Source of the DNA: Trueperella sp.
Lineage (GTDB): Bacteria > Actinomycetota > Actinomycetes > Actinomycetales > Actinomycetaceae
Assembly: GCA_012727825.1 (NCBI GenBank)
Contig: JAAYGH010000184.1
Coordinates: forward strand, 1 to 20,923
Reading direction: 5' to 3'
Length of the DNA stretch: 20,923 nucleotides
Positions within the stretch are counted from its first letter, which is position 1. Every line of letters starts with the position of its first letter. This document shows, in pieces, positions 9,143 to 12,098 of the stretch. The translations under genes and the position numbers were made by a program. The notes under the pieces were generated by a model, which saw only the letters and a program-made list of their open reading frames with translations, made no database searches and was not told where the DNA came from.

Positions 9143-10699
9143 TCACCCCTCACGTTCGCATCCATGCTTCTTCAAATATGCGCGCCATGTTATGGCCCAC
9201 TTCGCAGGATCGTCGAACCAGCTATCATCAATTCTGTGTACCACACTGCGGTGGGGAGCGGTCTTGACGATCTCGGGATTACTGTATGCCTCTGTTACTA
9301 CCCGTTCCAGGCAGGCAACGTACTCATCCAGCTCATCTTTGGAGTACGATTCTGTCGGCTCGATCGTGAAAGGTTGTGGGACTATGAACGGGTGATGACT
9401 TTGCCACAAATGGCACCCGTAGTCAGCAAGCCTTCTGGTTACGTCTTCACTTGTTACCCCGGTATCCCGATACAGCTGTTCCCAACTATACCTCACCTGC
9501 TCGATGCGGCGTCTTCCCACGGCGTAAGGCGCGCTGGCCCCTGCAAGCTCGGTAACCCGCTTGAGCATGTAGTTGTTGTTGAGCACAGCAATCCGTGCCG
9601 CCTCTTCTAGACCCGCCGCGCCCAGGCTCATGATCCAAGCGTATGCTCTCAACATGACTGGGAACACGCCATGGAAACACCGAACCTTGCCGATGCTATG
9701 GGGTAGGTCGTGCTTAAGGCGATACATGCCAGTGTCTGTCTTTTCAACAACAGGAGTCGGCAGATAATCTGCCAAATCGGACGTGACCCCCAGCGCTCCG
9801 CATGCCGGCCCGCCGCACCCGTGAGGCGATGCAAAGGTCTTGTGCAGGTTGAAGAAGCACATATCGAATCCAGCCTCACGTGCCCTGGTGATGCCCAGTA
9901 TCCCATTGGCGTTGGCCTGGTCGTAGCCGGAGATCCCGCCGGCCTCGCGAACCATGGCAGTGAACTGCGCGATCTTCGAGTTGAAAATCCCTGTGTCCTC
10001 CGGGTTGGTTATGAGCAGGCCGGCAGTGCGTTTCGATACTGCTCTGGTAAAGGACTCAAAGTCGGGCAGGCCGTCTTCGTCCTCGCGAATGGTGATGACT
10101 TTGTAGCCCTTAACCTTAGCCGCCGCTGCATCTGACGGATGCGAGAAGATCGTGGTGATTATCTCGTCTCTGGTGTCGGCCTCTCCGTGAACCTCGTGAT
10201 AGGCTCGGATTATGGACGCCATGGCCAGGATGGCGGCAGAACCCCCGCCGGGTTGAAAGCTGAATTTGTCCATCCCCGATATCTCACGCAGGAAAAGATC
10301 GAGCGAGTACATGATCTCGAGGGCTCCCTGCACAGTGCTGTCATCCTGCATCGGGTGCAGCTCGGAGGCTTTCGGAGATCGCACGAACGTTTCGTTGACT
10401 TTGGGGCTGTACTTCATTGTGCATGTGCCTTGCCCCACATCCACATTGAGGTCAGCTCCCAGCGTGCCCTGGGATAGACGCAGGTAATGCTTGAGCACGC
10501 GCATCTGGGACACCTCGGGAAGCGCCGGCATATCGCGGCGTATCATCTTGTCGGGAAGGCGAGATATCCCATCGCCAACCCGCTCTCGGATCCCAGGATC
10601 TGCCTCCGGAACTACTATGCCTCGCTCTCCCGGCCTGGAAAGCTCGAAGATGATCGGCTCATTCCACCTTGCCTGATGGAATTCACGCACCCTGGCCAT
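9143..10699 (-). CDS. GcvPB-like PLP protein (glycine dehydrogenase subunit 2 paralogue)
   Basis: This is a 518-residue fold-type I PLP protein resembling subunit 2 of the split glycine decarboxylase (P-protein). The PLP lysine lies in FFNLHKTFASPHGCGGPACG, and GTCTMKYSPKVNE and SIIRAYHEVHGE match the family. Several usual motifs differ. The pocket motif normally near AHGTNPASA reads SHPSDAAAAK, QPAAGAHGE reads QPGGGSAAI, and PLGSCTMKY reads VGQGTCTMKY. It is therefore probably a paralogue, perhaps with another amino-acid substrate, and GcvP activity should not be assumed. The ATG at 10697-10699 is chosen because GGAGGTGA precedes it by 5 nt; a GTG at 10708 falls inside that site. It overlaps the partner subunit gene by 17 bp. 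The reaction of canonical P-protein is glycine decarboxylation onto lipoylated GcvH, but no gcvH or gcvT is seen here. Confidence 0.85.
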   Translation of the reverse strand: MARVREFHQARWNEPIIFELSRPGERGIVVPEADPGIRERVGDGISRLPDKMIRRDMPALPEVSQMRVLKHYLRLSQGTLGADLNVDVGQGTCTMKYSPKVNETFVRSPKASELHPMQDDSTVQGALEIMYSLDLFLREISGMDKFSFQPGGGSAAILAMASIIRAYHEVHGEADTRDEIITTIFSHPSDAAAAKVKGYKVITIREDEDGLPDFESFTRAVSKRTAGLLITNPEDTGIFNSKIAQFTAMVREAGGISGYDQANANGILGITRAREAGFDMCFFNLHKTFASPHGCGGPACGALGVTSDLADYLPTPVVEKTDTGMYRLKHDLPHSIGKVRCFHGVFPVMLRAYAWIMSLGAAGLEEAARIAVLNNNYMLKRVTELAGASAPYAVGRRRIEQVRYSWEQLYRDTGVTSEDVTRRLADYGCHLWQSHHPFIVPQPFTIEPTESYSKDELDEYVACLERVVTEAYSNPEIVKTAPHRSVVHRIDDSWFDDPAKWAITWRAYLKKHGCEREG

Positions 10700-12098
10700 G
10701 GCAGTCACCTCCCTTTACAGCGCAACTGAGCGCCTCTACCAGATAATCCAGTTGCTCTTGGGTGTGAACCTCGGTCACACAGTAGAGCGCCGACTGCCCT
10801 AGCTCCGGGAAGTCGCGGGACAAATCAGCACCTCCGAAGATCCCGTGCGCCAGGAGATGTTCATTGATCTGCCGTACTGTGCGTCCGGTGCCGTTGAAGT
10901 CAACGACGAACTCCTTGAAATGGGGGGCATCAAAGGCCGGGGCCCTTACTCCGGGGATCTCGGACAGGCGCGCCATTGCGTACTGTGACTTCTGCATGAT
11001 TGTTGTACCCAGATCGCGCATGCCTTTCGGCCCCATCAGGGACAGGTACACGCCTGCCGTGATCCCCCAGAGGGCGGCGGCAGTGCCGACGAACTCCTTG
11101 CCCTCCTCACGTTGGGCGAAGGATGTGCGGCCGTAGGCAACGTCTCCAAAACCCCATTCTCCCGGAACCGAAGTCCTGGCAATTCCGAACAACCGGAACG
11201 GGTACTCCATCACGAACCGTTCCTCGTCGCGGCAGCCGATGAAGCCGCCCAGGCCTCCGCCATAATGCATGTGCATACCTAGTGGCTGGATGTCGCCGCA
11301 CACCAGATCGCAGCCGTAGCGTGCGGGGGGAACCATTACCCCGAGCGAAGCAGGATCCGTCCCGACGACCAGGAGCGCGCCGTACTGATGAGCGATTTCT
11401 GCAATGACCTCGCCTTCGGTCTCGATCGGTCCCAGATACGACGGGTTTTCAAAGTATACTGCTGCAGTCTCGTCCGAGATCTTTCGCTTCAGGTCTGCAA
11501 GGTCCATCATTCCGGTCGCTCGGGAGTGGGCGACAGGGATAATCCGCAGAGTGGGAGTGCAGTAGTTCATCATCACCGCCAGCCTCTCCGGGCTCACGGT
11601 ATCGGATACCAATGCTACATTGCGCCCGACGATCCTTGCAGCCATGCGCAGGGCCGTGCTTGCCGCCTGCCCCCAGTCGTATGTCGGCACATTCACTACG
11701 TCTACATCGAGTAACTCCGCCATCAGGCTCTGATACTCGAAGAGGGCCTGGAACCGCCCGTGGTCTTCGTATGGCTCTCCTGCATATGCAGTGAGAAACT
11801 CAGAACGCCCGTTTATTTCATCACATATCGCAGGCACGTAGTGCCTCGCACACCCTCCGCCAAGGAAGCTGATGTTCTCTTCACATGTTTGGTTCTTGCC
11901 GAGGATGCCCATGACGTGCCGCACCAGATCACACTCGGCCGTAATAGGCTGAGGAAGGTTCATCTTCCGGCGGAACCTGAGTTCTTCCGGAATGTCGGAG
12001 TAGAGCTCCTCTGTGCTCGACGCGCCGATCGCTCTGAGCATCTCCCGCTTCACTTCAGGCACGGAGTTAGGTATGTATGGATGGACCATATCACTCAT
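10683..12098 (-). CDS. GcvPA-like protein (glycine dehydrogenase subunit 1 paralogue)
   Basis: This 471-residue protein matches subunit 1 of the split P-protein: HPYIPNSVPEVKREML at the N-terminus, then SSTEELYSDIPEELRF, ENISFLGGGCARHYVP and FEYQSLMAELLDVDVVN. It should form a heteromer with the GcvPB-like protein encoded directly after it. The highly conserved TPYQPEISQG segment of true P-proteins is replaced by AGEPYEDHGR, and the usual ANASMYDGATA becomes VNVPTYDWGQA. This is the same kind of divergence as in its partner and argues for a separate subfamily. The ATG at 12096-12098 has GGAGG 8 nt upstream. It follows the SDR gene by 18 bp. Fold and pairing are firm; substrate and reaction are not known. 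Confidence 0.85.
   Translation of the reverse strand: MSDMVHPYIPNSVPEVKREMLRAIGASSTEELYSDIPEELRFRRKMNLPQPITAECDLVRHVMGILGKNQTCEENISFLGGGCARHYVPAICDEINGRSEFLTAYAGEPYEDHGRFQALFEYQSLMAELLDVDVVNVPTYDWGQAASTALRMAARIVGRNVALVSDTVSPERLAVMMNYCTPTLRIIPVAHSRATGMMDLADLKRKISDETAAVYFENPSYLGPIETEGEVIAEIAHQYGALLVVGTDPASLGVMVPPARYGCDLVCGDIQPLGMHMHYGGGLGGFIGCRDEERFVMEYPFRLFGIARTSVPGEWGFGDVAYGRTSFAQREEGKEFVGTAAALWGITAGVYLSLMGPKGMRDLGTTIMQKSQYAMARLSEIPGVRAPAFDAPHFKEFVVDFNGTGRTVRQINEHLLAHGIFGGADLSRDFPELGQSALYCVTEVHTQEQLDYLVEALSCAVKGGDCHGQGA

What the first reader, a model, noticed from the sequence alone, without database searches (positions are those of the whole stretch)
9143..12098. Divergent GcvPA/GcvPB pair inside a galactoside operon, without gcvT, gcvH or lpd
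Both subunits keep the P-protein fold and the PLP lysine but have lost segments that are nearly invariant in glycine decarboxylase: TPYQPEISQG becomes AGEPYEDHGR in subunit A, and AHGTNPASA becomes SHPSDAAAA in subunit B. The changes occur in both partners and the genes overlap intact, so this looks like a maintained paralogous enzyme rather than decay. A P-protein-like enzyme between lacZ and galT is not part of any galactose pathway I know. It may decarboxylate or otherwise process an amino acid released from a galactoside, or use glycine in a different way.
Basis: partly seen in the sequence, partly recalled or inferred. Interest (0 to 1): 0.75.

Follow-up and report, generated by a model that had tools for sequence, protein, structure and literature searches.

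The report
Glycine-decarboxylase look-alike in glycoside operon
A two-part vitamin-B6 enzyme that annotation pipelines label as glycine decarboxylase belongs to a separate, widespread family with a rebuilt active site; here it sits among genes for taking up and cutting a galactose-containing compound, and it probably breaks down the amino acid left over (my best guess is hydroxylysine from collagen).

Summary
Window 12098-10683 (PA) and 10708-9143 (PB) are intact P-protein homologues that keep the PLP lysine but have the glycine-decarboxylase loops replaced. This is a family trait, not decay: the best 80 of 441 relatives found (61-77% identical, Bacteria and Archaea) share it. The type forms one clade (UFBoot 100, both subunits); 21 PA and 30 PB columns are conserved but different from canonical. 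In 38 genomes with both types, an SDR dehydrogenase gene lies in 36 new-type and 0 canonical loci, gcvT in 0 and 23. Three genomes (two Paenibacillus isolates, one MAG) have this pair, no other P-protein and no GCV_T hit. So it is not glycine cleavage, although NCBIfam names it GcvPA/GcvPB. Some operons join it to beta-galactosidase (GH2 or GH42), a GH63/MGH1-like alpha-glucosidase and sugar importers, others to a polar amino-acid importer; lysine aminomutase or hydroxyproline enzymes lie near four copies. My reading is breakdown of glucosyl-galactosyl-hydroxylysine; substrate and chemistry are inferred. The contig looks mis-binned, so the own-genome test is not decisive.

The parts
10683..12098 (-). 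PA: GcvPA-like (alpha) subunit, new type; canonical TPYQPExSQG and EQHIRRxKATSNICT loops replaced
9143..10708 (-). PB: GcvPB-like (beta) subunit, new type; PLP lysine K290 kept, AHGTNPAS, LGSC and HE motifs replaced; overlaps PA by 26 bp
12117..12905 (-). SDR1: short-chain dehydrogenase of the recurrent SDR1-PA-PB unit; Asp after beta-2 in relatives suggests NAD use
12963..16070 (-). LacZ-type GH2 beta-galactosidase, upstream of SDR1
3390..5546 (-). GH63 / YgjK-like alpha-glucosidase
7972..9006 (-). GalT, galactose-1-phosphate uridylyltransferase
6762..7988 (-). GalK, galactokinase
5572..6747 (-). M24/creatinase-fold protein; metal-ligand positions lost in the printed alignment to a prolidase
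   Evidence: found in 1 of 109 new-type loci
17901..19205 (-). ABC sugar-binding protein, set 1
16097..17828 (-). two ABC permeases, set 1 (16929-17828 and 16097-16927)
2044..3291 (-). ABC sugar-binding protein, set 2
268..2075 (-). two ABC permeases, set 2 (1086-2075 and 268-1089)
19448..20890 (-). ROK-family regulator with N-terminal winged HTH

Best explanation
PA/PB is a heterodimeric PLP enzyme related to the glycine-cleavage P-protein that does not belong to the glycine cleavage system. With the neighbouring NAD-type dehydrogenase SDR1 it forms a recurrent catabolic unit for a hydroxylated amine (shown: clade, linkage, conserved active-site swaps; inferred: heterodimer, catabolic role). 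In this operon the likely flow is: ABC import of an alpha-glucosyl-beta-galactosyl compound; the GH63 enzyme removes glucose; LacZ removes galactose; GalK/GalT feed galactose into the Leloir route; SDR1-PA-PB consume the aglycone (order and location of the steps inferred). The aglycone is most likely 5-hydroxylysine from collagen-type Glc-alpha-1,2-Gal-beta-O-hydroxylysine (inferred). Committed chemistry (inferred, weakest step): SDR1 oxidises the 5-OH to 5-oxolysine, whose end R-CO-CH2-NH2 is glycine with OH replaced by R; PA/PB binds that aminomethyl group as P-protein binds glycine and breaks the bond to the carbonyl, releasing a glutamate-level acid and a one-carbon amine (methylamine) instead of CO2 and an aminomethyl group on lipoyl-H. 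Tiers: separate non-glycine-cleavage family about 0.95; substrate is the aglycone or amino acid handled by the operon about 0.75; that it is hydroxylysine about 0.5; this C-C cleavage rather than alpha-decarboxylation about 0.3.
For: Clade: UFBoot 100 for PA (26 new-type of 56 tips) and PB (27 of 57), separating branch 0.71 and 1.02, on random subsamples that include 30 canonical sequences each. Conserved swaps with intact PLP residues D263, N287, H289, K290. Paired control in 38 genomes holding both types, one locus of each: SDR1-like gene in 36 new vs 0 canonical loci, NAD-kinase-like gene 23 vs 0, gcvT 0 vs 23, gcvH 0 vs 25, any of four GH queries 9 vs 0 (Fisher p 0.002). Three genomes have this pair as the only P-protein and no GCV_T hit: G389 and G390 (the Paenibacillus isolates of L093 and L094) and the MAG G353. 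Beta-galactosidase is GH2 in 14 of 109 loci and the unrelated GH42 in L150, which also has an MGH1-like enzyme and sugar ABC genes; GH63/MGH1-like genes in 9 of 109 loci. Polar amino-acid binding protein in 8 of 109 loci, 7 of them with an M20/RocB-like gene. Lysine 2,3-aminomutase over its cut-off in L041 and L065, and a proline racemase/hydroxyproline epimerase/dehydratase-family gene (below each equivalog cut-off) in L018 and L074.
Against: No activity is known, and the hydroxylysine evidence is all contextual. Lysine- or hydroxyproline-related neighbours are 2 loci each of 109 and not significant in the paired control (p 0.49 each). The single-family GH tests are weak (GH2 p 0.012, GH63 query 0.12, permeases 0.054 and 0.12; several families were tested). 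SDR1 was found in 90 of 109 loci, not in all (some are cut by contig ends). Many relatives (NAD-kinase-like cluster in 47 and second-SDR cluster in 44 of 81 loci) carry genes with no role in the scheme, and most loci (about 94 of 109) have no GH2 or GH42. Of 16 further Bacilli loci, 8 have SDR1-PA(-PB) with neither importer. Hydroxylysine seems a narrow substrate for so wide a family. The GH63 protein scores below the NCBIfam YgjK-type cut-off (583 vs 625). No methylamine route was seen nearby; a MttB/corrinoid pair occurs in 1 of 109 loci.
Confidence: 0.5

Rival explanations
1. PA/PB acts as a plain amino-acid decarboxylase: it keeps P-protein's CO2 release but on a larger amino acid (for example hydroxylysine or its 5-oxo form), protonates the intermediate to give an amine, and SDR1 acts before or after it.
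For: Closest to the ancestral chemistry; PLP-binding residues unchanged; no H or T protein needed; same operon evidence.
Against: The loops conserved in canonical P-proteins are replaced, which is as easily read as loss of the glycine carboxylate site; an SDR1 gene is in 90 of 109 loci, so an alcohol oxidation is probably part of the route.
Confidence: 0.25
2. The substrate is another amino alcohol common in many habitats (1-amino-2-propanol/aminoacetone from threonine, or a beta-hydroxy amino acid); the glycoside operons are one specialised use.
For: The unit is spread over many phyla, mostly without glycosidases; a second SDR and a kinase-like gene often accompany it; oligopeptide-type ABC, M20 and threonine-dehydratase-like genes are seen near some Chloroflexota copies (read from sequence; M20 in L223 confirmed). 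Identity falls to 51% in some Chloroflexota, so more than one substrate is possible.
Against: Does not by itself explain beta-galactosidase plus alpha-glucosidase plus sugar ABC beside the same three genes in window, L072, L088 and L150; the loops are conserved across the sampled family.
Confidence: 0.2
3. It is still a glycine decarboxylase, borrowing H, T and L proteins from elsewhere in the cell.
For: NCBIfam equivalogs GcvPA and GcvPB are passed (483 vs 364 and 567 vs 441 bits); most carriers also have a canonical P-protein (67 of 71 genomes).
Against: Separate clade, substrate loops replaced and positions of modelled H-protein contacts not conserved (contacts from passages of PMC7259800), no gcvT/H hit in 109 loci, and three genomes with no GCV_T hit and no other P-protein.
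Confidence: 0.04

Closest known systems
Glycine cleavage P-protein, two-subunit form (GcvPA/GcvPB; Thermus 1wyt)
   Same: Sequence homology over nearly the full length of both subunits, PLP lysine and PLP-binding residues
   Different: Separate clade; 21 (PA) and 30 (PB) columns conserved at 85% or more in both groups but different; no gcvT/gcvH hit nearby in 109 loci; an SDR1 gene in 90 of 109
Threonine dehydrogenase plus 2-amino-3-ketobutyrate CoA ligase (recalled, no call)
   Same: Logic: oxidise an amino alcohol to an aminoketone, then PLP-dependent C-C cleavage
   Different: Different PLP family (recalled) and acyl acceptor CoA; PA/PB is a P-protein relative
Mammalian hydroxylysine route, hydroxylysine kinase and phospholyase (recalled)
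   Same: Presumed substrate
   Different: Phosphorylation then elimination; the NAD-kinase-like gene of the cassette is in families PF01513/PF20143 and its substrate is unknown
Protein glucosylgalactosylhydroxylysine glucosidase (PGGHG, GH65; passages of PMC8626586)
   Same: Presumed step: removing glucose from Glc-alpha-1,2-Gal-hydroxylysine
   Different: Here a GH63/YgjK-like enzyme, not GH65
E. coli YgjK (GH63)
   Same: Closest solved structure to the window alpha-glucosidase (E 3.7e-130)
   Different: Below the NCBIfam PRK10137 cut-off; the natural substrate of YgjK itself is uncertain (passage of PMC9061262); its Glc-alpha-1,2-Gal activity is recalled

Membership tests
Glycine cleavage P-protein | Near full-length homology of both subunits to P-protein | tested here: met
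   1wyt_A E 3e-65, 1wyt_B E 1.3e-89; NCBIfam cut-offs passed
Glycine cleavage P-protein | PLP lysine and PLP-binding Asp/Asn/His | tested here: met
   K290, D263, N287, H289 in 74 of 74 new-type PB and 78 of 78 canonical PB
Glycine cleavage P-protein | Conserved loops TPYQPExSQG, AHGTNPAS, PLGSC, HE, EQHIRRxKATSNICT | tested here: not met
   Replaced by other conserved residues in the 82 PA and 74 PB aligned
Glycine cleavage P-protein | Groups with gcvT/H-linked copies | tested here: not met
   UFBoot 100 split in both subunits on subsamples; the all-sequence FastTree also holds the new type together, with printed support 0.33 (PA) and 0.82 (PB) at the node found
Glycine cleavage P-protein | Linked to, or co-occurring with, gcvT | tested here: not met
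   0 of 109 loci linked (the same query finds gcvT in 23 of 38 canonical loci); no GCV_T hit in G353, G389, G390, where it is the only P-protein. Most carriers (67 of 71) do have a canonical P-protein as well
Glycine cleavage P-protein | H-protein docking surface | tested here: inconclusive
   Modelled contacts I372, R373, K376 (human; PMC7259800 passages) fall on columns not conserved in the new type by my own mapping; the contacts are themselves predictions
Glycine cleavage P-protein | Glycine decarboxylation with lipoyl-H | not testable with these tools
   needs assay
Hydroxylysine-glycoside catabolic operon (proposed) | Beta-galactosidase, alpha-glucosidase, sugar importer and galactose enzymes with the unit | tested here: met
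   window; without GalK/GalT also L072, L088, L150
Hydroxylysine-glycoside catabolic operon (proposed) | Activity on hydroxylysine or Glc-Gal-hydroxylysine | not testable with these tools
   needs assay
YgjK-type GH63 alpha-glucosidase | NCBIfam PRK10137 score over cut-off | tested here: not met
   583 vs cut-off 625; Pfam YgjK_N and MGH1-like GH are over their cut-offs, so it is called YgjK-like only

The most novel reading that the evidence does not exclude
SDR1-PA-PB is a new route for amino alcohols in Bacteria and Archaea: an NAD dehydrogenase makes an aminomethyl ketone, and a re-purposed glycine-decarboxylase P-protein cleaves it next to the carbonyl as its relatives cleave glycine, turning collagen hydroxylysine into a glutamate-level acid and methylamine without lipoate, H or T protein.
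Probability: 0.2. Interest if true: 0.88.

Novelty: new variant of a known kind. Interest (0 to 1): 0.68.

Why it matters
A PLP enzyme family seen here in about 110 loci of Bacteria and Archaea (and probably in many more) is called glycine decarboxylase wherever a listed record carries a name and passes the NCBIfam models, so glycine cleavage may be over-predicted in genomes and metagenomes, including Asgard archaea. If the hydroxylysine reading holds, it would give a bacterial route for the glycosylated amino acid of collagen, and a case of P-protein chemistry re-used without its lipoyl partner. Paenibacillus isolates that carry it without a detected T protein make it directly testable.

Tried and rejected
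Decay of a glycine decarboxylase: rejected; the changes are conserved across the 82 PA and 74 PB aligned. Own-genome test: gcvP (cut by the contig end), gcvT and gcvH are on contig C284 of G000, but the window correlates 0.67 in tetranucleotide use with the pooled bin contigs, whereas 16 other sampled contigs correlate 0.71-0.95 with the rest (20 sampled, 4 wholly N and dropped); I therefore do not lean on it. C117 (L139) is nearer the window (0.75) than the bin (0.71).

Hydroxyproline as direct substrate: set aside, because a secondary amine should not form the PLP aldimine (general knowledge). Xaa-Pro peptidase reading of the M24 gene: set aside (metal ligands lost in the printed alignment; no relative at E 1e-15 in the other 108 loci). 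Methylotrophy link through MttB: only 1 of 109 loci.

Literature: searches listed nothing whose title or abstract start is about a GcvP-like enzyme in hydroxylysine or glycoside breakdown. Lists were capped (30 of 76; 20 of 93; 20 of 24). Beyond listings I saw only passages of PMC8626586, PMC9061262, PMC7263609, PMC7259800 and PMC7850488. Subscription journals and preprints are mostly not held.

Limits: the 109 new-type loci are the window, the best 80 of 441 relatives, 16 Bacilli, 11 Chloroflexota and L150; the other 361 relatives were not seen and some may be canonical. Dropped before the alignment: 1 of 81 PA (L079, frame too long) and 10 of 81 PB (absent, cut or too short); L005 and L150 are the same gene and both are counted. 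My ORF caller failed in several GC-rich loci, so counts were redone with tblastn; its single gcvT and gcvH queries find only 23 and 25 of 38 canonical loci. Fisher tests treat genomes as independent, and several are close kin. No structure was predicted.
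Full report
What is there. The window is an almost complete run of genes on the - strand: ROK regulator, sugar ABC set 1, LacZ-type GH2, SDR1, PA, PB, GalT, GalK, an M24-fold protein, a GH63/YgjK-like enzyme, and sugar ABC set 2. PA and PB match Thermus P-protein alpha and beta subunits over nearly their whole length. PA starts 18 bp after SDR1 ends and overlaps PB by 26 bp. No tRNA and no Rfam family over its gathering score were found.

Not unique. A scan of a collection of 84,980 species genomes gave 452 candidate stretches; 441 encode relatives of PA at tblastn E <= 1e-3, and the best 80 (61-77% identity) were kept; the other 361 were not seen. 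The titles of the 80 name Aminicenantes, Heimdall-, Loki-, Baldr-, Njord- and Bathyarchaeota, Bacillota, Chloroflexota, Desulfobacterales, Gemmatimonadota and others. A protein search scored 8000 candidates for PB, 7931 of them at E <= 0.001; among the 120 listed, the names given are glycine dehydrogenase subunit 2 or GcvPB. The type is patchy: 17 of 398 genomes of one class (that of P. pinisoli) and 12 of 400 of one phylum (that of the Chloroflexota locus L072) hold a PA match at E <= 1e-100, down to 51% identity.

A separate family. In reduced ML trees all 26 new-type PA (of 56 tips) and all 27 new-type PB (of 57 tips) form one side of a split with UFBoot 100; each tree holds 30 canonical sequences drawn at random. 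An earlier FastTree with all sequences gave the same grouping, but the support printed at the node found was 0.33 for PA and 0.82 for PB. Columns conserved at 85% or more in both groups but with different residues number 21 in PA and 30 in PB, gap columns left out. PLP residues named for mouse GLDC after the Synechocystis structure (passages of PMC7850488; mapped by me) are kept: D263, N287, H289, K290 in 74 of 74 new-type and 78 of 78 canonical PB. The Ser said to bond the PLP ring corresponds, by my mapping, to Thr95 in 74 of 74. In PA the Tyr of TPYQPE is deleted in 82 of 82, its Glu is aromatic in 82 of 82, and EQH of EQHIRRxKATSNICT is TSF or TSM in 82 of 82. The human H-protein contacts modelled in PMC7259800 (I372, R373, K376) fall on columns that are not conserved in the new type; the numbering match is my own. 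The 82 and the 74 each count the G030 gene twice (L005, L150); 1 PA and 10 PB were dropped for length or absence.

Not glycine cleavage. In 44 genomes reached through the loci, 38 also have a canonical split GcvPB (650-805 bits, against 535-608 for uncut new-type hits), 2 (G379, G380) have a further hit in a longer frame that I read as the fused form, 1 (G350) shows only a further GcvPA-like piece near a contig end, and 3 (G353, G389, G390) have no other P-protein. Those 3 have no GCV_T match; a fourth, G354, has no GCV_T match but has canonical GcvPB. Of 27 further genomes with the new type, all 27 have both a canonical P-protein (25 split, 2 fused) and GCV_T. G389 and G390 hold loci L093 and L094, that is Paenibacillus sp. 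J5C2022 and P. pinisoli, isolates of 7.6 and 6.0 Mb; G353 is a MAG. H protein was not searched there, and in Bacillota it would not be diagnostic because it also serves lipoate synthesis (recalled).

The company it keeps. Paired control in the 38 genomes with both types (0.66 and 0.62 Mb in all): SDR1-like gene 36 vs 0, NAD-kinase-like 23 vs 0, gcvT 0 vs 23, gcvH 0 vs 25, GH2 7 vs 0 (p 0.012), any of GH2/GH63/MGH1/GH42 9 vs 0 (p 0.002), sugar permeases 5 and 4 vs 0 (p 0.054, 0.12), lysine 2,3-aminomutase 2 vs 0 and hydroxyproline epimerase/dehydratase family 2 vs 0 (p 0.49 each). Over 109 new-type loci: SDR1-like 90, GH2 14, GH63 query 8, MGH1 query 8 (9 loci together), GH42 1, NAD-kinase-like 58, polar amino-acid SBP 8, RocB-like M20 7, gcvT 0, gcvH 0. 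L019, the nearest relative, begins with a fragment that reads like the end of a LacZ (below the cut), then SDR1, PA, PB, GalK and GH63. Two settings recur in Bacilli: sugar ABC + GH2 + SDR1-PA-PB (L093, L094, L212-214, and in another order L075, L088) and SDR1-PA-PB + polar amino-acid ABC + M20 (L087, L089, L092, L205-208); of the 16 Bacilli loci fetched later, 8 have neither. In L150, from a genome of the bin's own family, GH42 takes the place of GH2 beside an MGH1-like enzyme and sugar ABC genes. The same three genes thus sit with an importer for a glycoside or with one for an amino acid. That fits an O-galactosylated, hydroxylated amino acid; 5-hydroxylysine is known to carry Glc-alpha-1,2-Gal (passages of PMC8626586), and lysine- and hydroxyproline-related enzymes near four copies agree with it, though these counts are small. 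The L205 binding protein is most like structures named as general amino-acid, arginine, glutamine or lysine/arginine/ornithine binders, which does not settle its ligand.

Mechanism. Shown: family, linkage, retained PLP site, replaced loops. Inferred: SDR1 (NAD-type by its Asp in all 12 printed motifs, 45 of 65 sequences) oxidises the alcohol, and PA/PB acts on the aminomethyl ketone, which resembles glycine with the OH replaced by a carbon chain. The second SDR and the NAD-kinase-like protein (PF01513/PF20143, no NCBIfam hit), frequent in archaea and Aminicenantes but absent from the window, are unexplained.

Verdict. The finding is real and its main point stands: a maintained P-protein paralogue outside glycine cleavage, mis-named by current models. 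Its substrate is a contextual guess and its chemistry a weaker one.

Noticed in passing
window 5572-6747 (-): M24/creatinase-fold protein: in the printed alignment to prolidase 5cdl the two metal-binding Asp are Cys and Ala and the GHG His is Gly, so it is unlikely to be a metallopeptidase; no relative at E 1e-15 in the other 108 loci.
   Followed up: partly
window 1-20923 (G000:C115); L139 (G000:C117): The window contig, and perhaps C117, look mis-binned in assembly G000 by tetranucleotide use.
   Followed up: yes
L061:7353-8468 and 57 further loci of 109: NAD-kinase-family protein (PF01513 + PF20143, no NCBIfam family), usually directly after PB; substrate unknown.
   Followed up: partly
L024:3-1655: MttB-family methyltransferase end and corrinoid protein just upstream of the cassette in an Aerophobetes MAG; the only such locus of 109.
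   Followed up: partly
NCBIfam NF001696 and NF003346: Both equivalog models pass the new type over their cut-offs (483 vs 364, 567 vs 441 bits) and so name it GcvPA/GcvPB.
   Followed up: yes
L020, L017, L045 (cluster c31, about 950 aa): Large secreted-looking protein without a Pfam hit (L020 copy scanned) near the cassette in three loci, at least two of them Aminicenantes by title.
   Followed up: no
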